Shown here piece by piece: positions 50,056 through 64,000 of a DNA stretch of 64,000 bases (its first letter is position 1; every line of letters begins with the position of its first letter). The notes under the pieces were generated by a model. The model did not search any database. It saw only the letters and a program-made list of their open reading frames with translations, and had not been told where the DNA came from. This stretch comes from a virus. Position numbers and translations under genes: made by a program. The stretch covers positions 35,814 to 99,813 of IMG/VR virus record IMGVR_UViG_3300030085_004215; one strand, written 5' to 3'.

Positions 50056-50664
50056 TTATAATATTTTATCAATTATTCCATATTCTAAACACTGTTCGGC
50101 AGTTAAATATGTATCATTTCTTTGAATCATTTCCCAAAAGTTTGCATCTTTTTTAGTAACATCATCAAGTAATGAATTGATATCTTTTTGTAAATCCTTT
50201 AAATGGTCAACACCTTTCATGACATCACCCACTTTTCCTGCTTCAAATGCAGAACCCTCGTGAACCATAACTGTTGAATGTGCCGTCATTCTTCTTTCAC
50301 CCGTTCCACATGCTAATAAAACTGATGCAGCACTCATACAAGTACCTAACGCCAGTGTGTTTACCTTAACTGGTAATGTTCTGATATAATCGACCAACCC
50401 CAACATTGAATATACATCACCCCCATACGAAGCAATTACCAAAGTAATATCTCTATCTGGATTTACTCTCACTAAGTAATCTAATTTTACTATCGTACTA
50501 TACAAACAATCAATATCAAATTCCATTGTGAGGTAAGTTACATTACTACTTGAATTAACTCCCCACTCCATTTCTGACATTGAGAATCTATGTTTCTGTT
50601 TGAAGTCTTTATTTTTTTTATCTAAACTTGCAGCTGCCATACTTGGTCTATTTTGCATACTCAT
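50056..50664 (-). CDS. ClpP/SppA-like serine protease, 202 aa
   Basis: A ClpP-fold peptidase. ITLVIASYGGDVYSMLGLVDYIR is the oxyanion strand, LGTCMSAASVLLACGTGERR holds the nucleophile Ser111, and TVMVHEGS holds His135. YLTAEQCLEYGIID is the closing family segment. The Ser sits after Met instead of Ala (ClpP GQAASM), as in some phage ClpP-like proteins. It could process virion proteins or act with the AAA+ unfoldase family; no ClpX/ClpA is in the window. Confidence 0.88.
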   Translation of the reverse strand: MSMQNRPSMAAASLDKKNKDFKQKHRFSMSEMEWGVNSSSNVTYLTMEFDIDCLYSTIVKLDYLVRVNPDRDITLVIASYGGDVYSMLGLVDYIRTLPVKVNTLALGTCMSAASVLLACGTGERRMTAHSTVMVHEGSAFEAGKVGDVMKGVDHLKDLQKDINSLLDDVTKKDANFWEMIQRNDTYLTAEQCLEYGIIDKIL

Positions 50665-51092
50665 TATTTACTCCATATTTTTTTCAATTGTTTATCTTCA
50701 ACACCATATTTCATTAGAATGGTCTTTATTTGTTCTGGTGTTAATATTTCAAGGTGTTCTTCTACCTCTCGTGTACTACACTCAAAGTAATCAACAAGGT
50801 GTTCCATTGCCCATTTTTCTACTTTAGATTTTTTCTTCGATTTTACATATTTTAAAAAAACTCTTCCTTTAGGAAGTATATCAGTATAAAATTGATACAG
50901 ATTTTTTGGTTTTATCTGCCAGTATTTTTGTATTTCATTTACAACCTGAATCCAATCATCCTTCATACTCAAAAATCTATGAACCATATAATTACTCCAT
51001 GTCTTTTTATCACCCTCTTCAAGTGAATCCCAATACATAGTATTTTGTACATTTGTAATTTGTTTTATGTGGTCAAATAAACTCTTAGACAT
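50664..51092 (-). CDS. Clamp-loader small subunit (T4 gp62-like), 142 aa
   Basis: Its helical pattern, LPKGRVFLKYVKSKKKSK in the middle and LVDYFECSTREVEEHLEIL, fits what I know of gp62 in T4-like marine phages; similarity is weak, as it is in that family. With gp44 it would load the sliding clamp. The gp44 gene is 11 kb away instead of next to it, as in T4. No sliding clamp (gp45) gene lies in the window. Confidence 0.6.
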   Translation of the reverse strand: MSKSLFDHIKQITNVQNTMYWDSLEEGDKKTWSNYMVHRFLSMKDDWIQVVNEIQKYWQIKPKNLYQFYTDILPKGRVFLKYVKSKKKSKVEKWAMEHLVDYFECSTREVEEHLEILTPEQIKTILMKYGVEDKQLKKIWSK

Positions 51093-51136
51093 AAGATAAC
51101 CTTTGATGTATATAAATAGGGCACTTTTTTCTCAAA

Positions 51137-51979
51137 TCAATTTTTAATTTTGGTTCTACCAAATAGTTGCCATTCAGAATCATTCAATCTTAAAATACCT
51201 CTATCGTTAATATTCTTGTGGTTTTTATCACTTAAGTTTGAATGTTCCAATTCACAACCAAGATTCTCTGCTATCATACTAACAAGTTCTATCATAAATT
51301 TTTCTTGTTTTACTTTGGGATTAATCTCATGTAATCCACCGATTATATTTTTCAGAGGTATTTGTATATTGTTAAAAGAATCATAAAGTCGTTTAGCCTT
51401 TACTGCACGTTTTTCAGAATCTAATTTTATCACTTCTTCTCCTAAAGTACTATCAACTTGGAAAGATATTGAGATATCTGCTGTATTGAATTCGAAAACA
51501 TCACTCCAACCACAACCTACAAACTTTTTCCATCGACCGTCTTTTTTCATTAATGCATCATTTCTACGATTGAATTTGACATCGATTCCGTAATAATTAC
51601 AAATTTTAAGTAAACTTTTTTTTATTGCAGTATCCAAAGTATCCATATCAAAATCATGAACAAAATGTAAGTTTTGAACAGTAGGACATTCTAAGTAAAA
51701 TCCAACAGGACTCCACTCTGATTTTGGTGGAGGTTTAGTTCTAAAATCCTTTTCTACATTCAATGGTTGTTCAAATAATCGAAGAGCTTCTGGCATATTT
51801 GACATGATGTGTGATAAATCAATTTCGTAAACACTACTAAATGGTACAATCGGTTCTACGGCAGCAAATGACACCATATAAGGTGGTTTAATATCAACAA
51901 GGTGTTGTACTTCCCACAAACCCGTATAAAGTTCTCGTGTTACTAACCCACAATCAATATATTTAATCCGAGGTTCCAT
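51137..51979 (-). CDS. Lipoate-protein-ligase-like protein, 280 aa
   Basis: The middle part, RRNDALMKKDGRWKKFVGCGWSDVF, resembles the lipoate/biotin ligase core, where R-x-N-D and G-x-K-x-x-G bind lipoyl-AMP, and ISFQVDS then KAKRLYDSF resembles the following strand and Lys helix. The start at 51979 (MEPRIKYID) is used since a longer frame would overlap the SET gene by over 100 bases. Such a gene in a phage is unusual. Match is moderate; activity is unproven. Confidence 0.45.
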   Translation of the reverse strand: MEPRIKYIDCGLVTRELYTGLWEVQHLVDIKPPYMVSFAAVEPIVPFSSVYEIDLSHIMSNMPEALRLFEQPLNVEKDFRTKPPPKSEWSPVGFYLECPTVQNLHFVHDFDMDTLDTAIKKSLLKICNYYGIDVKFNRRNDALMKKDGRWKKFVGCGWSDVFEFNTADISISFQVDSTLGEEVIKLDSEKRAVKAKRLYDSFNNIQIPLKNIIGGLHEINPKVKQEKFMIELVSMIAENLGCELEHSNLSDKNHKNINDRGILRLNDSEWQLFGRTKIKN

Positions 51980-52436
51980 TCCACTCATAATCATAACTTT
52001 CAAATAATTCTTCACCTTCTTTAATGTCACGATTTGCGATGAAATAGAAATCCCTATCACCCCTCGTGTATCCATCAAGATTAGGTGTATCAGAGTGATT
52101 TTGAAAAAACCATGTGGATTGGTAGTTTAGTCCTTTAGTAGTGTACATCCAAAGTTGACCATCTGATTCACTCCATTCAAAGTCCTCATCCATTACTTTT
52201 AGTCCAGCCTGTGCTTGTACATCATATACACATCGTAATAAACCCTTTGGGAAATGAGAAATATCTTCCCACTCTACCCAAACCTTAACACTTTTTGGAG
52301 CTAAGTCCCATACACTCGTTCCCTTTGGTATATCTCTTATTGCGACAGCACCAACACCATCACATACTTTTGATGCACAAGGTCTAGCCCATATGTGGTT
52401 TTCAAACCAATTAATTACAAACTCTTTATTATTCAT
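51963..52436 (-). CDS. SET-domain protein (lysine-methyltransferase fold), 157 aa
   Basis: GVGAVAIRDIPKGTSVW (27-43), FFQNHSDTPNL with NHS at 113-115, and GEELFESYDY with SYDY at 147-150 form a complete small SET domain: SAM-binding start, NHS, then the catalytic Tyr. SET proteins methylate protein lysines. The target is unknown; a host ribosomal or phage protein are options. It is coupled to the DUF1989-like gene and the lipoate-ligase-like gene by overlaps. Confidence 0.8.
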   Translation of the reverse strand: MNNKEFVINWFENHIWARPCASKVCDGVGAVAIRDIPKGTSVWDLAPKSVKVWVEWEDISHFPKGLLRCVYDVQAQAGLKVMDEDFEWSESDGQLWMYTTKGLNYQSTWFFQNHSDTPNLDGYTRGDRDFYFIANRDIKEGEELFESYDYEWNGTSD

Positions 52437-53046
52437 ATACTGAAATACCTATTGGTTTTGAATTTTCTGGATTAAAATGATATTGTTTTTCTAAATGGTA
52501 ATCAACTACAGGACAGAGTGATACAGAAACTATTAAATCAATATAACTTTTAAAGGTTATGTAATCTCCCTTTTTACAATCAGATACTCTTCCCTCTAAT
52601 CTATATCCATCTGCTGCAGGTTTTACCTTTTCAAATAAATTTATAGTATTATCATTTAGATGTTCAACATCTAATTCAAAATCTTTGATACTATTAAGAA
52701 AATTTGTTTTACAACTTCCACGACCTTGGTTTTCCTCATCATCACAATATCCTTGTACTAAATGGTGAAAACACCCATCTTTTGATGATTCGTATTCAGT
52801 TTCATCTATACACTTTGCAATGATTCTTCGTACTTTATAATCCGACCAGAGAGTTGAACCCTTCGTAATTTTTCTATCATTCATCCATAGAGTTTGATGC
52901 ATACTTAGGAATTCTTTTTTTGGATTATCTTTACTCCAAATAGCAACATCTAATATTTGAGGACCTTCTAATAATTCAAATTTAAAAAAATGGTCTTTAG
53001 GTACTATGAATGCAAACCCATCTCTTTCAACTTTATACTTGGTCAT
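52429..53046 (-). CDS. DUF1989-like (urea-carboxylase-associated) protein, 205 aa
   Basis: KKGDYITFKSYIDLIVSVSLCPV near the C-terminus matches the conserved GDY...CP segment of DUF1989, an aminomethyltransferase-fold family usually beside urea or amino-acid transport and carboxylase genes. ILDVAIWSKDN and FLSMHQTLW also fit. Its biochemical role is unknown. A phage copy next to an EamA transporter suggests an auxiliary metabolic function. Confidence 0.65.
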   Translation of the reverse strand: MTKYKVERDGFAFIVPKDHFFKFELLEGPQILDVAIWSKDNPKKEFLSMHQTLWMNDRKITKGSTLWSDYKVRRIIAKCIDETEYESSKDGCFHHLVQGYCDDEENQGRGSCKTNFLNSIKDFELDVEHLNDNTINLFEKVKPAADGYRLEGRVSDCKKGDYITFKSYIDLIVSVSLCPVVDYHLEKQYHFNPENSKPIGISVYE

Positions 53047-53944
53047 ATACTACTTGTTTTTCCTTATAAACTAAAACCAAACCACTTGAAATCATTACAA
53101 GTCCAAGTATCTGCCATAATGATGGTGTCATTGATAAGAAAAAATAACCGAGTGTCACTCCAAATATAGGTGTTCCTAACTCAACCATACCTGTATTGGT
53201 AGCTCCAATATTTTTAACTGCTATCCAATAACAGAAGTAAGCTATAAAACTTGCCACAACTGAAATATAAGTGATTGCAAGTAACCCATTAAATGTTACC
53301 TCTGAAAGTGTTGTCATAGGTGATTGGAATAATGAAACATAAACAAAGACTTGTAAGAAGTCATAAAATACAATCGTAAGTGGTTTGTATTTTTTCATAA
53401 TACCTTGACCAACCACGAGATATCCAACCCAAGTCAAACAAGCGGCCACATCTAATAATATACCCTTAGCATTTAAACCTTCGGTTGAGAATGATGGTAT
53501 CAGTTCAATAGCAAACATACAACCAAGAGTTCCCAATCCTAAAGCAATCTTTCTATTATTACTAAATTTTTCTCCATAGTAAAATATAGAAATCAAACAT
53601 AGTATAAATGGATACATATAGAATATTGCGTAAATAACAGGTAAGTTCGGGTCAAGTAATTCCCAAGCAAACCAATACACCAATAAATGTACTGCCAATA
53701 TTACACCATTAATCAAGAATTGTTTTCTATCTTCCTTTTCAACATAAAACAAATTTTCACCTGTTGTCTGTTTTTTCCATAACATTACCCCACCAAACAA
53801 TAGTGTAGCGATTAAAAACCTAACCGATAAAACCGATACAGGCCCTGCACCTTCAGCAAATATAAAACTACCAGTAACTTCAAGGGTTGACCAAGCAAAT
53901 ACTGCAGTTGCTATTGCTAAAAATCCTTTTAAGAATTTATTCAT
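53033..53944 (-). CDS. EamA/DMT-superfamily transporter, 303 aa
   Basis: Ten predicted membrane helices in two halves, the layout of the drug/metabolite transporter family. EamA members export amino acids or similar small molecules. It starts MNKFLKGFLAIATAVFAWSTL, typical. It overlaps both the DUF1989 and porin genes, so all are made together. Substrate is unknown. Full-length transporters of this kind are rare in phages. Confidence 0.88.
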   Translation of the reverse strand: MNKFLKGFLAIATAVFAWSTLEVTGSFIFAEGAGPVSVLSVRFLIATLLFGGVMLWKKQTTGENLFYVEKEDRKQFLINGVILAVHLLVYWFAWELLDPNLPVIYAIFYMYPFILCLISIFYYGEKFSNNRKIALGLGTLGCMFAIELIPSFSTEGLNAKGILLDVAACLTWVGYLVVGQGIMKKYKPLTIVFYDFLQVFVYVSLFQSPMTTLSEVTFNGLLAITYISVVASFIAYFCYWIAVKNIGATNTGMVELGTPIFGVTLGYFFLSMTPSLWQILGLVMISSGLVLVYKEKQVVYDQV

Positions 53945-54752
53945 TTTTATTTCCTATATTTAAGTTAAAACCATAATACAACTTAACCCTTAAATCACCT
54001 TCTCCACTAAATTCAGCGGAAACAAATTGGTTGGGTTCTCCGTACTGATAAACAAGACCATAAAGTGCCTGTGTTTCATCTTCAGTTCTTTCAAAACCTG
54101 CTAATGCTGATAGACCATATTTACCACTCTTGATAATTGCTCTACCCCATTGATAATCTTCTCTAAATTCTGTAACATAATCAATATATTTACTATATCC
54201 ACTTACATCAAGAACTTGTCTATCTTGATTATCAACTGATACACCGATAAAATGAACATCACCTACCTCATAACTTAATCTTGCAGTAGTTAGTACATCA
54301 TATCCGTTTTCGATATCATTACCATAATAGGTTTCTAAAAACCACTTACCAACTCCACCATAGACACTAACACCATCTCCGAAATACAAGAGTCCAACAT
54401 CATTAGGTGTTGGTGTTGCGTAAGTAAACCTATCACCTCTTGTTAAATCTAAGTATGGTACATTAGAACCAAATGGAATTGCTTGTCGTCCTAAACCAAC
54501 TGTGAACTTATCACTATATGGTTTATAGAACAGTTCCTCAACATAAACGGATTTATCACTCCACGGTGCTTCAATCCAAATCGATGCCATCCATTTTGAA
54601 TTATCATCTTTTATGAATGACCAGAGTGCTGGTTTGTCAAAGGATACCGAATCACCGACTGTGGTATATCCAACTACACTATTTTTTATTATTGCAGATT
54701 GAGTTGATACAAATGAAACCATCATTATCAACATAACCATTATTTTCTTCAT
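53937..54752 (-). CDS. Porin-like outer-membrane beta-barrel protein, 271 aa
   Basis: An N-terminal signal peptide (KKIMVMLIMMVSFVSTQSA) is followed by a mature part of alternating hydrophobic beta strands with Tyr/Gly-rich turns, as in outer-membrane barrels. The C-terminus does not end in the usual Phe, however (KLYYGFNLNIGNKNE), so assembly by BamA may differ. A host-derived envelope protein is likely; phage use is unclear. It overlaps the transporter start by eight bases. Confidence 0.6.
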   Translation of the reverse strand: MKKIMVMLIMMVSFVSTQSAIIKNSVVGYTTVGDSVSFDKPALWSFIKDDNSKWMASIWIEAPWSDKSVYVEELFYKPYSDKFTVGLGRQAIPFGSNVPYLDLTRGDRFTYATPTPNDVGLLYFGDGVSVYGGVGKWFLETYYGNDIENGYDVLTTARLSYEVGDVHFIGVSVDNQDRQVLDVSGYSKYIDYVTEFREDYQWGRAIIKSGKYGLSALAGFERTEDETQALYGLVYQYGEPNQFVSAEFSGEGDLRVKLYYGFNLNIGNKNE

Positions 54753-54768
54753 ATATAACCTCTTATTA

Positions 54769-55293
54769 TTATTTTCTAATTGCTTCCATATTAATCGAAA
54801 TACGAAAATCTTTTCTCTCTATATAAGTAGTGGTATGATTTACGAAATTAGGAAAAAAAATTAAATTATTTTTCTTTGGTAGATATTTGTAAACCTTTTC
54901 TCTTTCTTCAAATAAAATATGTCCACCTGTCATATCATCTGGCACTTCTAAATAGTAAACACCGACCATATTTGATGTCATTGAATGGTTATGCCAGTTG
55001 ATTGGACAATAATCTTCATTACATACCATCAAATAATACATACTCTCATCCCTACCTATAGTGTAATCTTTACCATCAAATTTTTTTAATAAATCAACGA
55101 ACTTTTTATTTAATGTATTAAATACACCCACCTTAGTATTAATTGGCATATTATAACCAAATTGTAAGAGGTTTCTGTTTGCATTAAAGTGTTCAATACT
55201 ATGTGTTATTGATTCATTTATAGTATTATCATTCTTTAAAAAGTTTTCTACACAATATATGGGTAAATTTTTAAATATTCTATTGTATTTCAT
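54769..55293 (-). CDS. Fe(II)/2-oxoglutarate oxygenase-like protein, 174 aa
   Basis: INWHNHSMTSN has the first metal His as part of H-x-H, NLIFFPNFVNHTTTYI holds the second His and FRISINMEA the Arg. Those are the family's HxD/H...H...R positions, so it is a putative hydroxylase. The ATG at 55293 is in frame after the GTG at 55299, inside the GNAT gene's end. Confidence 0.62.
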   Translation of the reverse strand: MKYNRIFKNLPIYCVENFLKNDNTINESITHSIEHFNANRNLLQFGYNMPINTKVGVFNTLNKKFVDLLKKFDGKDYTIGRDESMYYLMVCNEDYCPINWHNHSMTSNMVGVYYLEVPDDMTGGHILFEEREKVYKYLPKKNNLIFFPNFVNHTTTYIERKDFRISINMEAIRK

Positions 55294-55720
55294 ATCCACA
55301 TTTTTTAAGTAAATTTATACTATTAATATTCCAATCATCAACCTCAGACCAAAGATAATCTAATTTCCTTAACTTACCTGCAGTAATACCTGAACTTACT
55401 AAATTAAAACCATAACCTTTATTTCTAAAATCCTTATGTACATATAAGTTTAAATATTCTTTAGTGTGATAATTTAACCAAGACCATCCTCTTACTTTAT
55501 CATCTATATTTAAAACGGATAAACACCATCCATCAGATAATCTCTCGTATGCATCAGATATACTCCACATACCATCCCAATTTAATTCTCGTTGAAATTC
55601 TTCAATTGCAATAGATAATTTATCTTCAGTATCCTTTGGAATTAGTTGATTCCAAAATTGTACTTCCTTGCATGTATTATAAAACTGATAGTTATCGAGA
55701 TAACGATGAAGTTTAATCAC
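55280..55720 (-). CDS. GNAT acetyltransferase, 146 aa
   Basis: LNLYVHKDFRNKGYGFNLVSSG is the acetyl-CoA-binding core (R/Q-x2-G-x-G), followed by DYLWSEVDDWNINSINLLKKCGYE, the family's strand 5 and closing helix. It N-acetylates an amine, maybe a protein or sugar. It overlaps the gene upstream by four bases. Confidence 0.85.
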   Translation of the reverse strand: MIKLHRYLDNYQFYNTCKEVQFWNQLIPKDTEDKLSIAIEEFQRELNWDGMWSISDAYERLSDGWCLSVLNIDDKVRGWSWLNYHTKEYLNLYVHKDFRNKGYGFNLVSSGITAGKLRKLDYLWSEVDDWNINSINLLKKCGYEIQ

Positions 55721-56376
55721 TTAAAATAACTCTCTAATCGTTCTTCTTTTAGTTCTTGTTCTGTTTTCTCAAAATCTTTTCTTTTCATACCAAGATTTGG
55801 TCGTTTATCATACTTATATTCTTTATACTTTCCGTCCTGTCTAACATAATGTATAAATAATTGAACACATTCAGTACCTTTATATGGTAATCTCCAATGG
55901 TTCATTTGTGTACCTTCATAAAAACATACATCACCATATGAAAGAGAAATGGATTTTGGTTTAGGTTTAGAATCTACTACTTGTTGAGCATGACCCTCTT
56001 CTCCATATTTATCAAAATCATATTTACACATTAATATTGGCCATTTCTCATCATATCTGATTGGTATAGTAGCCGAAAATTCACATGAAGGTCTATCGGT
56101 ATGTGGTTTTAAAAAATCAAGATTATTGTAAATTCTAAGAAATGAATAACAAGGAAAAAGTTTTTCACCAACCACCTTTTCTGCAAGTGGTGTTAGAGTT
56201 TTCATCAGAGTATCGTTTAAAGTATCACCATATAGTACAAGTGTACCTTGAACCTGGTTATCATCAAATAGAAGTTCATTATTTTCTGATTTTAATGTGT
56301 AGTATTCATACATCAAATCCAATACATCTTTATGTATGTGATTCTTTACAACCTTATAACCACTTTTATTAAACAT
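55717..56376 (-). CDS. Fe(II)/2-oxoglutarate oxygenase-like protein, 219 aa
   Basis: LKPHTDRPSCEF (His-x-Asp) and MNHWRLPYKGTECVQLFIHY (second His and later basic residue) fit the family. The C-terminal 40 residues are a basic helical tail ending ERLESYFK. Proteins of this shape occur in marine phages beside tail-fibre genes, where they may hydroxylate virion proteins, unproven. Confidence 0.75.
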   Translation of the reverse strand: MFNKSGYKVVKNHIHKDVLDLMYEYYTLKSENNELLFDDNQVQGTLVLYGDTLNDTLMKTLTPLAEKVVGEKLFPCYSFLRIYNNLDFLKPHTDRPSCEFSATIPIRYDEKWPILMCKYDFDKYGEEGHAQQVVDSKPKPKSISLSYGDVCFYEGTQMNHWRLPYKGTECVQLFIHYVRQDGKYKEYKYDKRPNLGMKRKDFEKTEQELKEERLESYFK

Positions 56377-56874
56377 TTACTCCCACTCAGGTATATTATA
56401 TCCAGCTATTGATTTAGTTGTTGGTATTAAATAACTCTCTACCAAAACCTCATCATAAAAATCTCTATATCGTATGTAGTGTCCTGCATCTACTGAACCC
56501 GAAACTGCATCATACCATTGATGTTCTGAATCTTCTATACGAAATCTAACAACCTCACCCTGCAAACTTTCAGGTACAAGAGATGAACTCCAAAACTTAG
56601 TTTTAAGAGATTCATCAGTTTGTAGTGATTGTGAAAAATAATCCCAACTTGCAGTTGCCTCATTTATATCATCAAATGTATGATGAAATCCTAATACAGA
56701 TACAACTGGTTTTTGGTCAAAAATATCTACAATTGTAAATGGATAGGATGAAGAATCATAACCAGTGTAGTCATTTTCATCTACACTAATATATCCAGTC
56801 TCTATACCACCACTTACTTCTGGTTCTGCAACATTGAGAGAAGCCTCTCCGTGAATTAAAAATGTTTTTGCCAT
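56377..56874 (-). CDS. Hypothetical protein next to the 906-aa protein, 165 aa
   Basis: Beta-rich, with ALNV, VSGGIETGYISV and many short hydrophobic strands, and no domain recognised. Its place between an oxygenase and the large Hint-containing protein, and its acidic Gly/Ser-rich start, suggest a structural or tail-associated protein, an inference. Confidence 0.55.
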   Translation of the reverse strand: MAKTFLIHGEASLNVAEPEVSGGIETGYISVDENDYTGYDSSSYPFTIVDIFDQKPVVSVLGFHHTFDDINEATASWDYFSQSLQTDESLKTKFWSSSLVPESLQGEVVRFRIEDSEHQWYDAVSGSVDAGHYIRYRDFYDEVLVESYLIPTTKSIAGYNIPEWE

Positions 56875-56880
56875 AATATA

Positions 56881-59601
56881 TTAAGGAGCGAGTGGCCCTC
56901 CGTTGAATTGTGGTCCACCCTCATGGTATGCACCATTATTAGGATGTCCTTGATGGACATATGTTGATTGGTCTCTTGAATCTGCAGAATCAAAAGATTT
57001 TTGCCATATTAGAATTTTACAAACATTATACGCACCATCTGATGAACTTGGATTTGGATATGAGTTACCACCAAATGCAAATCTATTACTTGGACTTCTT
57101 GGATTAGTTCCAGGTGTCGGAAAATTAAAAGAATTTTGCATATTAGCTGGAGGTGTTTCATAATTCTTGTAAACGGTGTAGTAAGGACTTGATTGGTCTG
57201 TTACCCAATAAGTAAATTTATGTTTACTAAAATACTGAGGAGATACTTTTGGGTTAGATGGATATAATCTGAACGCAGTATTACCTGCTGGTTGATTCCA
57301 TACTGCAGAATATGGACTTGGTGCCCATTGTGAACCATTGTACCAATAATATCTTGCACCTGGCCCGTTTGGATAAACAGCTATATCAAAATTTGCACCT
57401 GTTGCCATACCCATCAATCTTCTTCTGGTTGGAGAATTTGGTTGATAAGCTTGATTTGGTGGCCATGAAGTACCTGCCTGATATGGAGAAGCAGTAAAAC
57501 AAAGCATTACTGTCATTGGATATTGAGATGAAAACATAACTTGTGCATGGTATAAATTACTTGGCTGTCTCTGTAATCGTGCTCCTTTATAAGATGTGTT
57601 TAAAGGTACAGTTGAAAACTCTGGATTAGGATACTCACCTTGTATTGGTGCCAATGATGCTTTAGGTCTTGGTGTTGAGCTTAGTGGTGATGGTGCTGGA
57701 TGAAAAGTCAAATCTGCATTTAATCTTGAATCCATAGCATACCAAGTTGGACCTGCTGCAGGGAATGATTGTGGATTACCCGCATCGTAATTTCCTATAA
57801 CTTGATTCTCATCCAATAAATCAAATTGTGAAGGCCCATTATGAACTTTTAATGCATTCATAAAATAATTTTCTGTAGGTTTTATATCATAGATATCCCA
57901 ATGAGATTTTTTACCAACAACTTCTTTCATACTCACAATTTTACATGGAACCATTTCTCCATAAATAGCAGTTGTTACTTTCATATCTGGTCGTTTATAA
58001 GTTAAGCAAGTCATACCAGGTCGTAACCTCATAACTTCCATTCGCTTTTTAGAATAGGTTAGACTAGGGTCATAAGATGCCCAACCAAATGTAGGTTTAA
58101 TTTCATCTCTAATTCCTCTTTCAACTCCAGCCTCATTATGTGTACCAAAAGGTTCTAAACCATCTGTTCTATCCATACGAATATCATAATCCATCGAATT
58201 TATCACCTTGAGTGGTTTTTCAAATAAAAATTCACTTGTAAAATATGTACCACCAAGTTCAAATGTTATCTCAACTACTCGTTCTGGCATTTCTGCATCA
58301 GCAGCTTTTGCCATTGTTGCTTCAACTATTTCTTTTTCAGTTGAACTTAAAACAATATCTTCTTTAAATGGATTGGTTATAATACTATCCAATCCTTGAA
58401 CAAAATTTTCATGTTTGGCAGATATTTGAAACCCATTCAGATGAAGTACATTCTGAGGATTTGTAACTGTTTTTACTCTTACCCTTTCGGTAATTACTTC
58501 TAATTTTTTTATTTCATAATCCTTACCATCCTTTAACAATACATCACCAACTTCTAATAAATGTACAGGTACAAATCTACCACGATTATTTTCTTTTATC
58601 AGTACTGAAGCGGATGATAAAAATTTATGAGTATCATTTATTTTAATATAATGAAAGTGGTGGGGAAATTGTTGTTCAACCAAAGTATCATTTTCAGATA
58701 CTTCATCAGTATAGAATAAGTTTGCAGATGATACACGATGTAGTTCTCGTTGATTATTTCTTTCTTCATAATCCCAAAGTTGTGTATATAAATTTGGAGT
58801 TAAATTAAAGTAATCCTTACGAAACATCATTTTATAATGTTTAATTTCTACATTAAAACCTGTAACATGGTCTTTTTCCATATCTATAAAGTGTTCAACA
58901 TAATCATATTTCGATAGTCGTGTAAGAAATTTTCTCTTATCAGTAAATTTTTCTATATGAACTCCATGTTTTCTATCGATATTTCTTTTCTTAAAAACAA
59001 ACCATCTATTAGGTTCATATATATCATCGTAAAAACCAGCTGCTCTATCTGGTTTCTCAGTATAGGGTGCAGTGATTGAAGTACCTGCAAAATCATTTAG
59101 ATACTTTTTAAATGCAATTTTATCTGCTGCAAATTTATCAATAGTACAATTCTTATCCCATGCAATTCTTACTATTAAATCTTTTCTTTTATTATATTTA
59201 AAATCAAATATATCTGTTTCAGGATCAACTGTTTTTAATCTTAGGTTTACCTTATTTTTATCGGTAATTGTTTGAAATTCCCTATACCAATTACCTTGTT
59301 TAATCTTACCCTCTGCTTTTTCATTTATCAATAATATTATATTTTCATATTTCCATTTTTTTACAACATCCATTATAGGTTTAAAATCAAACCACTCTAC
59401 TATATCATTATCAAATGCAGAATTTGTATTAATTTCAGTTACATAACCTGTGTAATCATCAGGTAAGATATCATAGCAATACAAAAGTATTTCATTTTTT
59501 CGCAGATAGGTGGTGTCCATTAGAAACTCATCTATGTCGTCTGTCTGGCTATTAATGATATATTTGTATATAAACTTATCGAAAACTAAATCTTTTTTCA
59601 T
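56881..59601 (-). CDS. Large protein with a Hint-like module and Pro/Ser-rich C-terminus (probable virion protein), 906 aa
   Basis: The first 330 residues are unassigned. Residues about 333-610 carry a Hint (intein/hedgehog) outline: HKFLSSASVLIK, then HLLEVGDVLL at the start block, and ENYFMNALKVHNG as the terminal block. The usual first Cys is replaced by Ser, and no intact C-terminal extein nucleophile is required. The last 250 residues are Pro/Ser/Asn-rich and Tyr/Trp-studded, like an adhesin or tail-fibre knob. It is likely a surface or virion protein, with the Hint module degenerate or used for self-cleavage. Confidence 0.6.
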   Translation of the reverse strand: MKKDLVFDKFIYKYIINSQTDDIDEFLMDTTYLRKNEILLYCYDILPDDYTGYVTEINTNSAFDNDIVEWFDFKPIMDVVKKWKYENIILLINEKAEGKIKQGNWYREFQTITDKNKVNLRLKTVDPETDIFDFKYNKRKDLIVRIAWDKNCTIDKFAADKIAFKKYLNDFAGTSITAPYTEKPDRAAGFYDDIYEPNRWFVFKKRNIDRKHGVHIEKFTDKRKFLTRLSKYDYVEHFIDMEKDHVTGFNVEIKHYKMMFRKDYFNLTPNLYTQLWDYEERNNQRELHRVSSANLFYTDEVSENDTLVEQQFPHHFHYIKINDTHKFLSSASVLIKENNRGRFVPVHLLEVGDVLLKDGKDYEIKKLEVITERVRVKTVTNPQNVLHLNGFQISAKHENFVQGLDSIITNPFKEDIVLSSTEKEIVEATMAKAADAEMPERVVEITFELGGTYFTSEFLFEKPLKVINSMDYDIRMDRTDGLEPFGTHNEAGVERGIRDEIKPTFGWASYDPSLTYSKKRMEVMRLRPGMTCLTYKRPDMKVTTAIYGEMVPCKIVSMKEVVGKKSHWDIYDIKPTENYFMNALKVHNGPSQFDLLDENQVIGNYDAGNPQSFPAAGPTWYAMDSRLNADLTFHPAPSPLSSTPRPKASLAPIQGEYPNPEFSTVPLNTSYKGARLQRQPSNLYHAQVMFSSQYPMTVMLCFTASPYQAGTSWPPNQAYQPNSPTRRRLMGMATGANFDIAVYPNGPGARYYWYNGSQWAPSPYSAVWNQPAGNTAFRLYPSNPKVSPQYFSKHKFTYWVTDQSSPYYTVYKNYETPPANMQNSFNFPTPGTNPRSPSNRFAFGGNSYPNPSSSDGAYNVCKILIWQKSFDSADSRDQSTYVHQGHPNNGAYHEGGPQFNGGPLAP

Positions 59602-59634
59602 AACTATAAATATATATTAGTTAAAAAAAATATA

Positions 59635-60288
59635 CTATTTAAATGGAGGACCATGAAACCAAGTAACTATAGCATGTCGTGTACCTTTTGTTACTGGTGT
59701 TACTGCATGTTGTAAATATGATGGAAAAAATATTATAGTGCCAGGTGTTTTTGGATAATGTAAAATTGGGTTACCACTATCATCGGCGTGTTGCAAGTGA
59801 CCAAATAACAGTTCACCACCCTCATATTCCGATGGGTCATTTACAAGAATGGTGCTTGATAACTTTCTAAAACAAGTTGGTATATCACCACCAGCATCAA
59901 CATGAAAATCATACTTACCTCGTTCTGAGGATTCATATCTCAGTAGGATAGATGGTTCCATTAGGTTATCTAATTCAAATCCATAAAATTGCTCGTTGGC
60001 TTCATGAGTTAATTGTTCTAATTTATTGTAATACCACTCTGTAAACTCAGCAAAGGGGATTGCATTTTCGTATGCAACTCGTGGTGTATCATCACCACGA
60101 TAATTACCCATATCAGCATCACCCATTGTTAATGCAGGTCTATCTTCTGTATCGGTACGATTCATTAGTTCTTGAAGTCTTTTCAGTTCTAATGGATTAA
60201 ACGCACCCTCTATTGCAAATGGCATTGTTACATTTTCAGCATAGGTTGATTGTTTTTGATATCTTAAGGTGGATATATTATATCTCAT
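59635..60288 (-). CDS. PKHD-type Fe(II)/2-oxoglutarate hydroxylase-like protein, 217 aa
   Basis: YDFHVDAGGDIPTCF is the His-x-Asp site, FFPSYLQHAVTPV the distal His and KGTRHAIVTWF the Arg that binds 2-oxoglutarate. EYEGGELLFG is the family strand between them. It agrees with prolyl-4-hydroxylase-type PiuC/YbiX proteins and is the best preserved oxygenase of the cluster. Protein or metabolite substrate is not evident. Confidence 0.87.
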   Translation of the reverse strand: MRYNISTLRYQKQSTYAENVTMPFAIEGAFNPLELKRLQELMNRTDTEDRPALTMGDADMGNYRGDDTPRVAYENAIPFAEFTEWYYNKLEQLTHEANEQFYGFELDNLMEPSILLRYESSERGKYDFHVDAGGDIPTCFRKLSSTILVNDPSEYEGGELLFGHLQHADDSGNPILHYPKTPGTIIFFPSYLQHAVTPVTKGTRHAIVTWFHGPPFK

Positions 60289-60823
60289 TTTTAACTCCTT
60301 CTATTTTTAAATCTTTATACAACTTTTTATATGTATCTTTTGAACCTGAACTCACATCAATATTCCATTTATAAGCTGGTTTTTTAGAAAAATACAAATC
60401 TTTACTTGCTATAAACATACAATTATTTGGTAAATTATAAACTGCACAACTCTTACGAGCAAAAAATCCACCATAAGTTGATTGTATCTCTAATTTTGAA
60501 GTATCATGTTGAGTCTCTATAGTATCAAATAGATATATGGAAGTATTATAGTTTTGTCTACCTCGTTTATCATCAAGTTTATAATAAATTGTATCTAACC
60601 ATTTATTTTTATACCATGTATCGTTCTTATCATACCTACCTTGGTCACCCGCAGTATGAATGTAATATGTAGAAAATTGTTTTAAGTGCACTTCAAATAA
60701 CTCGGTAAACTCATCATCCCAAATTTTACCTCGTGTAATGTAATCCCTAATCAAATAAGTATCTGCAGTATAATAAATCATTACACCTAAACTGTTATCT
60801 AATACCTTATAATTATGACTCAT
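60278..60823 (-). CDS. Hypothetical protein, 181 aa
   Basis: No recognised family. It is basic and Tyr-rich, with RDYITRGKIWDDEF near the N-terminus. It sits between two oxygenase-like genes and overlaps both, so it is probably part of the same unit. Function unknown. Confidence 0.6.
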   Translation of the reverse strand: MSHNYKVLDNSLGVMIYYTADTYLIRDYITRGKIWDDEFTELFEVHLKQFSTYYIHTAGDQGRYDKNDTWYKNKWLDTIYYKLDDKRGRQNYNTSIYLFDTIETQHDTSKLEIQSTYGGFFARKSCAVYNLPNNCMFIASKDLYFSKKPAYKWNIDVSSGSKDTYKKLYKDLKIEGVKNEI

Positions 60824-61353
60824 CTTTCTATATTACCTGCAACAACATATCTGTCTTTAGAATAATGCCATTCTTTTTTCTTTACTTCGTGTACAACCCA
60901 GCCTGGAAAAAATACGAGTAATCCATAATCTGGCTCAACACTACCCCACCCATCAATTTCTAAAGTTGGGAAATCTACCCATTGATTTAAATAATAACAA
61001 AATGACCATGCAGCTGGAGAGTGACAATGTGGTTTGGCATAATCACCAGACGAATATTTTGCACACCAAATATCTTTAACTGATAATCCACCCAAATCAT
61101 TAGTCCTTAGAATATCATCTATTATACCTATAAAGGTTTCAAATGGTTTTTTATATTTAGGTTTAAGTTGAGATTTATATTCAGTCATTTCACAACGCAA
61201 GTTAGTATTATGAATCATTTCATCACCTGTCTCATCCATTATATTCCTAAATTCTTTTATTAATTTATCATCTCGGATATAATATTTTATGACAGCTGGT
61301 GGCATGGTTCTTTCATACCAAGGTCTATTTGGTGTTACTTCGGTTATTTTCAC
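60820..61353 (-). CDS. Fe(II)/2-oxoglutarate oxygenase-like protein, 177 aa
   Basis: AKPHCHSPAAWSFCYYL holds His-x-His in place of His-x-Asp, VFFPGWVVHEVKK the distal His and RYVVAGNI the Arg. The pattern resembles the small dioxygenases of T4-like marine phages (DUF6445/TIGR02466-like). The His for Asp change may alter iron binding. It is one of five such genes. Confidence 0.68.
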   Translation of the reverse strand: MKITEVTPNRPWYERTMPPAVIKYYIRDDKLIKEFRNIMDETGDEMIHNTNLRCEMTEYKSQLKPKYKKPFETFIGIIDDILRTNDLGGLSVKDIWCAKYSSGDYAKPHCHSPAAWSFCYYLNQWVDFPTLEIDGWGSVEPDYGLLVFFPGWVVHEVKKKEWHYSKDRYVVAGNIER

Positions 61354-61611
61354 TTATAACTTATCCTCTAAACCAGTACCCTTTAACATTGTTTTTGGTA
61401 CTTTACCACAATTACCACAACTATAAACATCAATTGGTATTAATGCCTCCTCGCCTGTTGGTGACATTAAAGGTGATATTCTTTTAATAATTGTTGAACT
61501 AATAAATAGTACATTGTTACAAGATTCACAAGCAACTGTATCTGCTTTTGATATATCTACTTTTACTTGTTGTTTATTTGGGAGAGGTGGTCTCATTGGT
61601 TTTGTACTCAT
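61354..61611 (-). CDS. Small zinc-ribbon protein, 85 aa
   Basis: CESC (near 28-31) and CGNCGKVP (near 65-72) form a zinc ribbon, a conserved layout among T4-like marine phages. The first 15 residues are Pro-rich (RPPLPNKQQ). No function is known to me. It overlaps the kinase gene by four bases. Confidence 0.72.
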   Translation of the reverse strand: MSTKPMRPPLPNKQQVKVDISKADTVACESCNNVLFISSTIIKRISPLMSPTGEEALIPIDVYSCGNCGKVPKTMLKGTGLEDKL

Positions 61612-62399
61612 ATTACTTCCTTAAGTTTAATTGTTGAAACTCCATGTTTTTGTACTACAGTAGTAGTACACTTTTGTGCAAATTCTATTGCACTTTCTAT
61701 ACTATTGGTATCTAAGTAACCACGAACTAATCCTGCAAGGAATGTATCCCCTGCACCACTAACATCTTTAACGGGTACTTCATCTACACGAAAATCTTTT
61801 TCATTCCATCTACAACCTTTACTACCTAATGTAACAATAAGTTTAGAATCAAACCCCTTTTCAGATAGTAATTCATGATTCTTTTTATATTCCAATTCAT
61901 TTATTTTTATAAAATCTGCAGATGCAATCCATTTTCCTAATCTCTTTTTTGTATCAACAAAAACATTTTTATTGTTTTCACAAATATAATTTATATCCTC
62001 TTCCTCTAAAAATCCTTTACAATAATCTGATATAATAATTGCATCTACTTTTGTTACATCATTAAAATATGGTTTACAAGTATTATCTTTTATCGTAAGT
62101 AGAGTATCTTTTTTAATTCTTTGACACCAATCATGTTCATCAACTCGTAAAACCATCTGACCACTACGATTATCTACAAATCGAGTTTTAATTATTGAAT
62201 TTAGATTAGTAATAGTATGTACTGTCATACCCAAATCTTCAACATTATTAGAAACATTTTTTGCCATACCATCATTTTTATTAGTGTGTGTAGGAATTAA
62301 GACAGGAACTGGTGCTTCTGGACTTACTCTAGCAATATCACCGTATACGAACACATCTTCACAACTATCTCCTATTACTAAAACTCTATATTCGTTCAT
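61608..62399 (-). CDS. PfkB-family sugar kinase, HldE/RfaE kinase-domain-like, 263 aa
   Basis: RVSPEAPVPV at 24-33 is characteristic of heptose 7-phosphate kinase (HldE domain I), and DVSGAGDTFLAGL near 214-226 is the PfkB signature. Length fits the kinase domain alone; the HldE adenylyltransferase domain is absent. It could phosphorylate D-glycero-D-manno-heptose-7-P for the glycan cluster, whose SDR at 25909 is a possible partner, or another sugar. Confidence 0.82.
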   Translation of the reverse strand: MNEYRVLVIGDSCEDVFVYGDIARVSPEAPVPVLIPTHTNKNDGMAKNVSNNVEDLGMTVHTITNLNSIIKTRFVDNRSGQMVLRVDEHDWCQRIKKDTLLTIKDNTCKPYFNDVTKVDAIIISDYCKGFLEEEDINYICENNKNVFVDTKKRLGKWIASADFIKINELEYKKNHELLSEKGFDSKLIVTLGSKGCRWNEKDFRVDEVPVKDVSGAGDTFLAGLVRGYLDTNSIESAIEFAQKCTTTVVQKHGVSTIKLKEVI

Positions 62400-63322
62400 T
62401 TTATAACTCCTATTAATTCTATAAACATTGCCATAGTATTTATTTCTTTATCCACCACAATAGAATCACTTTGTTGGTATTGTGATAAAATTAATATACA
62501 TTGTGCAACATTTCCTCTACCCCAATCATCGACTGTATCAAATAACAATCTGAATAAATCAGAGAAATCTGTTACCTTTGAATCTGCTAATAATTGTCTT
62601 ATGTTTTTAAAGGAATTCTTTTTATCTTGTGTTTTTAAAATCTCTAATACTTGATTCTTGTAATCATTCTGAATACTCATTCCCTCATCAATAACCAACT
62701 TACCATCCACTACTTGTCTTTGTGCAGCATTAATAACTCTACGGATATCAGGATAACCACCATTAACTATTGTAGCAATATCATTTACATCCGATTGTAC
62801 CTCTTCGTTTTTTAGTATACCAGATAAATGAACTGCAACTTGTTTCCTATCTGGTGGAATAATTTGAAAGGATTGACATCTACTTTGAATTGGGTCTATG
62901 ATTCTCTCAACATAATTACAAGTCAAGATAAACCTACAATTCTTACTAAATGTTTCCATGAGATTACGAAGTGCGGCTTGTGCGTTTGGTGTAATGTAAT
63001 CACACTCATCTAATATAATCACTTTCATTTCTTTAAATCCAAGTGTAGAAGCAAATGTTTTTACCTTATCTCGAACAACCTCAACACTATTCTCATCAGA
63101 TGCATTAATATATAAATAATCACAATCGATATTATGTACAAGTAGTTTTGCAAGAGTAGTTTTACCAGTCCCTGCACGACCATACAAAAGTAAGTGTGGT
63201 AAATCACCACTCTTTATATATACATCAACTTTACTTCTGAGATGTTCGTTACCAATATAACCATCTAATGAATTGGGTCTGTATTTTTCAACCCACAATG
63301 TATTTTTTACTTCTTTTTCCAT
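62396..63322 (-). CDS. 44: Clamp-loader ATPase (T4 gp44/RFC-like), 308 aa
   Basis: A AAA+ clamp-loader: WVEKYRPNSLDGYIG opening, Walker A GRAGTGKT at 48-55, Walker B ILDECDY at 104-109 (DECD box), and the SRC arginine-finger motif at 147-149. It forms the gp44/gp62 complex that loads the sliding clamp onto DNA at replication forks. Start ATG at 63322; a TTG two codons up is also open. A gp62-like gene is at 50664-51092. Confidence 0.93.
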   Translation of the reverse strand: MEKEVKNTLWVEKYRPNSLDGYIGNEHLRSKVDVYIKSGDLPHLLLYGRAGTGKTTLAKLLVHNIDCDYLYINASDENSVEVVRDKVKTFASTLGFKEMKVIILDECDYITPNAQAALRNLMETFSKNCRFILTCNYVERIIDPIQSRCQSFQIIPPDRKQVAVHLSGILKNEEVQSDVNDIATIVNGGYPDIRRVINAAQRQVVDGKLVIDEGMSIQNDYKNQVLEILKTQDKKNSFKNIRQLLADSKVTDFSDLFRLLFDTVDDWGRGNVAQCILILSQYQQSDSIVVDKEINTMAMFIELIGVIK

Positions 63323-64000
63323 ATCCAAATTGGTTCTCCAAATGCTACATTTTTTGTATGTTTTGTTTTATCTTTTAAATATTCTTTAAAATACTCACTC
63401 TTGGCATTACCTGCACCACCACTATTAAAACGCTTGGTCATTTCCATTCCAATACAACCAAAATAATACAACCCTTGTGATTTAATAAAATCATTCATCG
63501 GATTACATATATCAAAATAATCCTTATCCTTTGCGGAATATACATCTGCAATATTAATCGCAAGAATACCATCACTCTTTAATGTAAATATCACCTTGGC
63601 CAGTGTAGAATGCAAAAAATCTTTGTTCCAACTATCAATATTTTTATATCTGATATAACTTTGTGTGTCTTCGTCCGAATACTTCTCTACATTAAAATAT
63701 GGCGGTGATGTAAAGATTGTATCAAAATAATTTTCATATTTAGAATAATCTACATCCTCTGCTGGTTCACAAATTAAATCTACTTTTTTTTCTTCTTCAA
63801 ATAATGTCTGATGTTTTTTATAGAACTCAACTTGTCTTTTATAATTTGGATGATTGACGGTGTTGGGGTCAATCCCAACATATGATTTTGTTGTCTCTCC
63901 ACAATAAAACCCAGCCAACCTATCACCCCAACCAGCACTAAAGTCGAGTACATTAACACTTCCAAAATAGTCATAAAATGCCTTTGCTATACTTGGTTTG
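63307..64000 (-). CDS. DNA methyltransferase (TSPPY type), 5' end cut by window edge
   Basis: The frame is open to the right edge, so the true start is outside. The visible segment VLDFSAGWGDRL is SAM motif I; IFTSPPYF is the catalytic motif IV of N4-cytosine or N6-adenine methyltransferases. An internal ATG at 63918 would drop motif I and is not the start. It probably methylates DNA to evade host restriction, or adds a virion DNA modification. The target sequence is unknown. Confidence 0.82.
   Translation of the reverse strand, partial: KPSIAKAFYDYFGSVNVLDFSAGWGDRLAGFYCGETTKSYVGIDPNTVNHPNYKRQVEFYKKHQTLFEEEKKVDLICEPAEDVDYSKYENYFDTIFTSPPYFNVEKYSDEDTQSYIRYKNIDSWNKDFLHSTLAKVIFTLKSDGILAINIADVYSAKDKDYFDICNPMNDFIKSQGLYYFGCIGMEMTKRFNSGGAGNAKSEYFKEYLKDKTKHTKNVAFGEPIWIWKKK

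What the first reader, a model, noticed from the sequence alone, without database searches (positions are those of the whole stretch)
51137..54752. Coupled cassette: lipoate-ligase-like, SET, DUF1989, EamA transporter, porin-like
Five overlapping genes that are individually rare in phages: one modifies proteins (SET), one may attach a cofactor, one belongs to a urea-carboxylase-associated family, and two make a path across both membranes. Together they suggest import or export of a small molecule plus protein modification. The combination is not one I recognise.
Basis: partly seen in the sequence, partly recalled or inferred. Interest (0 to 1): 0.65.

Follow-up and report, generated by a model that had tools for sequence, protein, structure and literature searches.

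The report
Mobile phage envelope-transport gene cassette
A group of uncultured phages carries a compact, overlapping gene block for an outer-membrane pore and an inner-membrane transporter plus two or three enzymes; the block is kept together and swapped between otherwise distant phages, so it probably does a real but still unidentified job for the virus.

Summary
The five overlapping genes are real and on one strand. Domain calls hold for SET, DUF1989 and EamA. The 'lipoate ligase' has the LplA fold and invariant catalytic lysine but lacks the lipoyl-binding RRxxGGGxxxHD signature. The 'porin' matches no family by sequence; a low-confidence model resembles general porins. The cassette is absent from 50,697 phage records but occurs in 29 other IMG/VR contigs, always porin, EamA, slot 3, SET, ligase-like. 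Porin precedes EamA in all 27 contigs that reach that far; the ligase-like gene follows in 29/29, SET in 25/29. DUF1989 fills slot 3 in only 10/29; four hold an unrelated protein there and 15 nothing. EamA is 88-96% identical to most relatives whose clamp-loader neighbour is about 50% identical. EamA and porin distances correlate with each other (0.69) but not with the clamp loader; SET and ligase-like correlate with each other (0.50). So it is a mobile operon of two units: pore + permease (+ DUF1989), and SET + ligase-like. Best reading: a trans-envelope small-molecule route, probably amino-acid- or amine-like, with an optional zinc enzyme and a protein-modification pair. Direction, substrate and target are undetermined. 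New combination of known parts.

The parts
53937..54752 (-). porin-like outer-membrane beta-barrel protein, 271 aa with N-terminal signal helix; first gene of the cassette
   Evidence: ORF; no family hit; AF2 beta-barrel model, low confidence, best PDB matches OmpU/OmpC-type porins E 2.7e-7; upstream of EamA in all 27 relatives that reach it.
53033..53944 (-). EamA/DMT-family 10-TM permease, 303 aa; 8-nt overlap with porin
   Evidence: Pfam EamA 3.1e-28; TIGR00950 2.4e-16, below its cut-off; ten hydrophobic segments; 88-96% identical to most relatives.
52429..53046 (-). DUF1989 protein with intact zinc-cysteine triad C101/C112/C178; 14-nt overlap with EamA; optional slot-3 gene
   Evidence: Pfam DUF1989 2.1e-19; PDB 3di4 1.7e-13; invariant Cys; present in 10 of 29 relatives.
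51963..52436 (-). SET-domain protein, 157 aa, putative protein-lysine methyltransferase; 8-nt overlap with DUF1989
   Evidence: Pfam SET 1.4e-11; NHSxxPN and GEEL...Y motifs largely conserved in A3; present in 25 of 29 relatives.
51137..51979 (-). lipoate/biotin-ligase-fold protein, 280 aa, with N140-D141 and K152-x-x-G155 conserved but no RRxxGGGxxxHD motif; 17-nt overlap with SET
   Evidence: Alignment A1 and with E. coli LplA; AF2 pLDDT 86; Foldseek PDB 3r07/1x2g E 3e-13 to 7e-13; follows in 29 of 29 relatives.

Best explanation
This is a translationally coupled, horizontally exchanged phage operon made of two co-inherited units. Unit one, porin + EamA permease, makes a path for a small polar molecule across the outer and inner membranes of an infected Gram-negative host; by family it is most likely amino-acid- or amine-like, and export or exchange is more likely than uptake because the nearest named EamA families are mostly exporters. 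Slot 3 carries an optional cytoplasmic protein: in some phages a zinc-type DUF1989 protein that may hydrolyse or deaminate a C-N compound related to the transported one, in others an unassigned protein, in others nothing. Unit two, SET + ligase-fold protein, probably modifies lysines of a host protein: SET by methylation, the ligase-fold protein by transferring an unknown acyl group through an adenylate intermediate. Shown: gene order, coupling, conservation, co-inheritance, folds, several active-site residues. Inferred: substrate class, direction, enzyme reactions, host type, and that the two units serve one purpose.
For: Same order in 29 further contigs, including L011 and L020 where the block sits beside different genes. 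All 25 close SET relatives, all 10 DUF1989 relatives and all porin relatives not cut by a contig end lie in the cassette. EamA dN/dS about 0.05-0.16 and porin about 0.1-0.6, lowest for close relatives, so both make selected proteins. EamA dS 0.4-1.1 for most relatives against mostly 1.2-3.4 or saturated for the clamp-loader neighbour in the same contigs, so the block moved between phages. Mantel rank correlations: EamA-porin 0.69, porin-DUF1989 0.66, EamA-DUF1989 0.54, SET-lipo 0.50; EamA-gp62 -0.12, porin-gp62 0.00. EamA named relatives: amine/amino-acid transporter, O-acetylserine/cysteine exporter, YddG, YedA. DUF1989 keeps three cysteines that align with the zinc ligands of the family (PMC12560246). 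Ligase fold and lysine.
Against: No step is biochemically tested. The porin model is low confidence. The ligase-like protein lacks the lipoyl-binding signature and evolves fast (median identity 35%), and no lipoyl-domain or GcvH acceptor was found in the window record or seven related records. DUF1989 is missing from 19 of 29 relatives, so the core function does not need it. EamA/porin distances track SET and ligase-like distances only weakly (0.09-0.32), so the two units may do unrelated things. One control correlation is also not zero (porin with the c7 gene 0.42), so linkage to position is not fully excluded.
Confidence: 0.45

Rival explanations
1. Surface remodelling: the phage porin replaces or dilutes a host porin to block superinfection or change permeability, and the linked EamA and enzymes serve other purposes.
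For: Porin evolves faster than EamA (identity down to 35%) with a length-variable region near the N-terminus, as exposed loops do. Phage-borne porins that replace host porins are known from memory (lambdoid phage PA-2 Lc/NmpC).
Against: Porin is coupled to EamA by a conserved 8-nt overlap and their distances track each other (Mantel 0.69), which surface remodelling does not predict.
Confidence: 0.2
2. No joint function: the genes are independent accessory genes that share a hypervariable island between the clamp-loader genes and travel together by recombination in conserved neighbours.
For: The island between gp44-like and gp62-like genes is rich in variable enzyme genes; slot 3 content varies; correlation between the two units is weak.
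Against: Fixed order with fixed short overlaps in the relatives, also in the different contexts of L011 and L020, and strong porin-EamA co-inheritance.
Confidence: 0.2
3. Nitrogen salvage from guanidine/urea-like compounds: porin and EamA import the compound and DUF1989 acts as a carboxyguanidine-deiminase-like enzyme.
For: DUF1989 matches the urea-amidolyase-associated models TIGR03424 (3e-9) and TIGR03425 (1e-5) and has the zinc cysteines. That some DUF1989 proteins are carboxyguanidine deiminases is known to me; papers naming the enzyme are listed but were not read for it.
Against: Scores are far below the equivalog cut-offs (37 vs 285 bits; 25 vs 206 bits); the deiminase needs two subunits and a carboxylase (from memory), absent from the cassette; 19 of 29 relatives have no DUF1989; the two plasmid homologues looked at are not beside an annotated urea or guanidine carboxylase.
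Confidence: 0.08
4. Polyamine/SAM-linked module: the cassette handles an amine made from S-adenosylmethionine.
For: Seven relatives carry an AdoMet decarboxylase (SpeD) close upstream of the porin, directly so in six; SET uses SAM; EamA scores best to an amine/amino-acid transporter model.
Against: The window record has no SpeD, nor do most relatives; no polyamine synthase seen.
Confidence: 0.07

Closest known systems
Lipoate-protein ligase A (E. coli LplA, Thermoplasma Ta0514; PF21948, TIGR00545)
   Same: Fold; N-D and catalytic K-x-x-G core; position of the later lysine and the following loop
   Different: No RRxxGGGxxxHD lipoyl-binding signature; 15% identity to E. coli LplA; below the TIGR00545 cut-off; no acceptor domain found in the phage
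DUF1989 proteins (PF09347), incl. carboxyguanidine deiminase CgdA/CgdB and TMAO demethylase domain; PDB 3di4, 3oru
   Same: Domain over Pfam cut-off, three aligned zinc cysteines
   Different: Not an equivalog of TIGR03424/TIGR03425; no carboxylase or second subunit; 205 aa, so no GcvT domain of TMAO demethylase
EamA/DMT drug-metabolite transporters (TIGR00950, YddG, YedA, O-acetylserine/cysteine exporter, LicB 7b0k)
   Same: EamA domains, ten hydrophobic segments
   Different: Below every specific cut-off; paired with a porin in a phage
SET-domain proteins of cyanophages (e.g. Synechococcus phages S-B05, Sf-CH1b)
   Same: Short stand-alone SET domain
   Different: About 30% identity; the one cyanophage context read (Sf-CH1b) has no cassette
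Phage-encoded porins of the Lc/NmpC kind (recalled, not tested)
   Same: Phage gene for an outer-membrane porin
   Different: That one is a lone gene in a temperate lambdoid phage; here it is coupled to an inner-membrane permease in a phage with T4-type replication genes

Membership tests
Lipoate-protein ligase A | LPL/BPL catalytic fold | tested here: met
   AF2 pLDDT 86, Foldseek E 3e-13 to LPLs
Lipoate-protein ligase A | Catalytic lysine (E. coli K133) in K-x-x-G with preceding N-D | tested here: met
   K152, G155, N140, D141 invariant in 18 relatives and aligned with LplA
Lipoate-protein ligase A | RRxxGGGxxxHD lipoyl/adenylate binding motif | tested here: not met
   No counterpart in the alignment with E. 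coli LplA; the region reads xFYxEGPxxTNF
Lipoate-protein ligase A | NCBIfam TIGR00545 cut-off (280 bits) | tested here: not met
   19.7 bits
DUF1989 (PF09347) | Pfam gathering score and three zinc cysteines | tested here: met
   70.3 vs 27 bits; C101, C112, C178 invariant
Carboxyguanidine deiminase CgdA/CgdB | TIGR03424/TIGR03425 equivalog score | tested here: not met
   36.8 and 24.7 bits vs 284.7 and 205.95
Carboxyguanidine deiminase CgdA/CgdB | Two-subunit pair next to guanidine/urea carboxylase | tested here: not met
   One DUF1989 gene in the window record; no carboxylase among the cassette and its neighbours scanned
TMAO demethylase | C-terminal GcvT domain | tested here: not met
   Protein is 205 aa with DUF1989 alone
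SET lysine methyltransferase | SET domain with NHSxxPN and GEEL..Y motifs | tested here: met
   45.1 vs 22.4 bits; motifs in A3
SET lysine methyltransferase | Methylation of a protein lysine | not testable with these tools
   No target known
EamA/DMT transporter | EamA domains and ten transmembrane helices | tested here: met
   99.2 vs 28.2 bits; 10 segments by hydropathy
Bacterial general porin | Signal peptide and outer-membrane beta-barrel | tested here: inconclusive
   Helix 2-15 then mostly strands, pLDDT 57; porin hits E 3e-7; no Pfam, NCBIfam, PHROGs or PDB sequence match

The most novel reading that the evidence does not exclude
A previously undescribed virus-encoded trans-envelope transport system that spreads between phages as a unit and is coupled to a paired lysine-modification system: a SET methyltransferase and a re-purposed lipoate-ligase-fold enzyme with a new acyl substrate, both acting on host lipoyl-type lysines to reset central metabolism during infection.
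Probability: 0.1. Interest if true: 0.8.

Novelty: new variant of a known kind. Interest (0 to 1): 0.5.

Why it matters
Phage auxiliary genes are mostly described as single enzymes. A conserved, mobile operon that supplies its own outer- and inner-membrane path would show that some uncultured phages re-plumb the host envelope for a particular small molecule. It also offers two testable enzymes: a ligase-fold protein that keeps the catalytic lysine but lost the lipoate site, and a SET protein inherited with it.

Tried and rejected
Host or cellular source by genome-contig scans with EamA and porin alignments: nothing confirmed. Relatives of the window genome cannot be drawn for a virus record. 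DUF1989 single-sequence scan found nothing; the alignment scan found 10. Rfam found only a tRNA in the window. PADLOC found no defence model. Lipoyl-domain and GcvH acceptors: none in eight phage records. Slot-3 alternative protein looked like a 2OG oxygenase by eye (invariant H127, H193, R206) but no Pfam, PHROGs or useful PDB match supports it. 'Acinetobacter phage MD-2021a' DUF1989 hits lie beside urea-carboxylase-type genes and look like bacterial DNA in the record. No paper found on phage EamA, phage lipoate ligase as an auxiliary gene, SET in cyanophages, or a phage DUF1989. Of the Melnitz methylophage paper only a term search was made: no EamA or porin.

Full report
What is there. The window is bases 35814-99813 of a 120,405-base IMG/VR virus record. 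It has T4-type replication genes: a gp44-like clamp-loader gene at 62396-63328 and a gp62-like one at 50664-51092. The cassette lies between them on the '-' strand. Transcription order: porin-like 54752-53937, EamA 53944-53033, DUF1989 53046-52429, SET 52436-51963, ligase-like 51979-51137. Overlaps are 8, 14, 8 and 17 nt. The ligase-like start is corrected from TTG 52078 to ATG 51979 because relatives start there.

Identity of each gene. EamA: Pfam 3.1e-28, ten hydrophobic segments; all 17 members match TIGR00950 (carboxylate/amino acid/amine transporter) below its cut-off, and a few match RarD, YddG, YedA and O-acetylserine/cysteine exporter models. DUF1989: Pfam 2.1e-19, PDB 3di4 at 1.7e-13. 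Cysteines 101, 112 and 178 are invariant in ten phage sequences and line up with cysteines in 3di4; in TMAO demethylase, zinc is bound by three cysteines of this domain, C263, C279 and C343 (PMC12560246). SET: Pfam 1.4e-11 with the usual motifs. Ligase-like: weak by sequence (TIGR00545 4e-4; PF21948 in 6 of 19 members), but the AF2 model (pLDDT 86) matches lipoate ligases at E 3e-13. Against E. coli LplA, N140-D141 and K152-x-x-G155 align with the catalytic RND and K-x-x-G, whereas the RRSSGGGAVFHD stretch has no counterpart. Porin-like: no family or PDB sequence match; a low-confidence model with a signal helix and barrel strands matches OmpU and other general porins.

The cassette elsewhere. 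No DNA match in 50,697 phage records. No protein match for EamA, porin or ligase-like, three DUF1989 records, and seven cyanophage records with a distant SET. In IMG/VR, 29 other contigs carry EamA of this type. Porin lies directly before it in all 27 that extend far enough; the ligase-like gene follows in all 29 (in contig 3300030060_006977 it is seen in L122); SET lies between in 25. DUF1989 is there in ten: L003, L008, L009, L010, L012, L016, L018, L022, L024, L033. In L013, L014, L015 and L052/L107 the same slot holds another protein; in fifteen it is empty. Three pairs (L002/L023, L006/L007, L108/L109) look like near-duplicates, so about 26 are independent. In L011 and L020 the block is followed by different genes from the usual gp62-like gene, so it keeps together when its surroundings change.

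Exchange between phages. EamA is 88-96% identical between the window and most relatives, with dS mostly 0.4-1.0, while the gp62-like neighbour is about 50% identical with dS mostly 1.2-3.4 or saturated. Mantel tests on protein distances after dropping one of each near-duplicate pair: EamA-porin 0.69 (p 0.001), porin-DUF1989 0.66 (0.002), EamA-DUF1989 0.54 (0.004), SET-lipo 0.50 (0.001), DUF1989-SET 0.50 (0.004), EamA-SET 0.32 (0.005), EamA-lipo 0.16, porin-SET 0.15, porin-lipo 0.09; EamA-gp62 -0.12, porin-gp62 0.00, SET-gp62 0.00, lipo-gp62 0.38. Porin with the c7 gene after gp62 gives 0.42, so the decoupling from position is strong but not total. Eighteen pairs were tested. dN/dS is far below one for EamA and below one for porin and DUF1989; for SET and ligase-like dS is often near saturation and the ratio is rough.

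How it may work. Shown: order, overlaps, co-inheritance, purifying selection, folds and several active-site residues. Inferred: porin and EamA form a two-membrane route for a small polar molecule, probably amino-acid- or amine-like; family members lean to export, but LicB, the one PDB match, is a choline importer to my knowledge, so direction is open. DUF1989 is an optional zinc enzyme on a C-N compound. SET and the ligase-like protein are inherited together and both are of kinds that act on protein lysines, so a shared host target is plausible; no lipoyl-type acceptor was found in eight phage records, so the target would be a host protein. The host itself is unknown.

Comparison with the known. 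Each gene belongs to a known superfamily (the porin only tentatively), and none meets the definition of a named member: not a canonical lipoate ligase (signature missing), not a carboxyguanidine deiminase (equivalog scores and partners missing), not TMAO demethylase (no GcvT domain), no named EamA transporter. Searches of the held papers found no description of this combination; most subscription journals are not held. Verdict: a real, mobile, new combination of known parts; function undetermined; interest moderate.

Noticed in passing
window 50664-63328: The stretch between the gp62-like and gp44-like clamp-loader genes is a hypervariable enzyme island: three 2OG-Fe(II) oxygenases (54769-55299, 59635-60288, 60820-61353), a GNAT acetyltransferase (55280-55720) and a PfkB-type kinase (61608-62399).
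   Followed up: partly
window 56881-59601: A 906-aa protein without Pfam or PHROGs match whose middle part resembles a HINT/intein-like domain by eye; relatives at 33-52% identity sit in many related contigs.
   Followed up: no
L003:6790-7176, L013:6816-7172, L014:6810-7169, L015:6749-7114, L016:6750-7115, L022:3597-3956 (L021:4659-5024 with one gene between): An S-adenosylmethionine decarboxylase (SpeD) gene lies directly before the porin in six relatives, after a GNAT-QueC-like fusion gene; the window record has no SpeD.
   Followed up: partly
L014:8899-9618, L013:8899-9609, L015:8899-9612, L052 from 5271: An unassigned protein (alignment A7) takes the DUF1989 slot; other copies of its family occur elsewhere in the same islands. 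Invariant histidines and arginine suggest an iron enzyme but no library supports it.
   Followed up: partly
L130:1176-4660, L013:10899-13216: After the ligase-like gene some relatives carry radical SAM proteins, a sulfotransferase and a further family A7 protein, reminiscent of a small biosynthetic cluster.
   Followed up: no
window 50056-50664: A ClpP-type protease gene (Pfam 7.7e-30) lies next to the gp62-like gene and is conserved in relatives.
   Followed up: no
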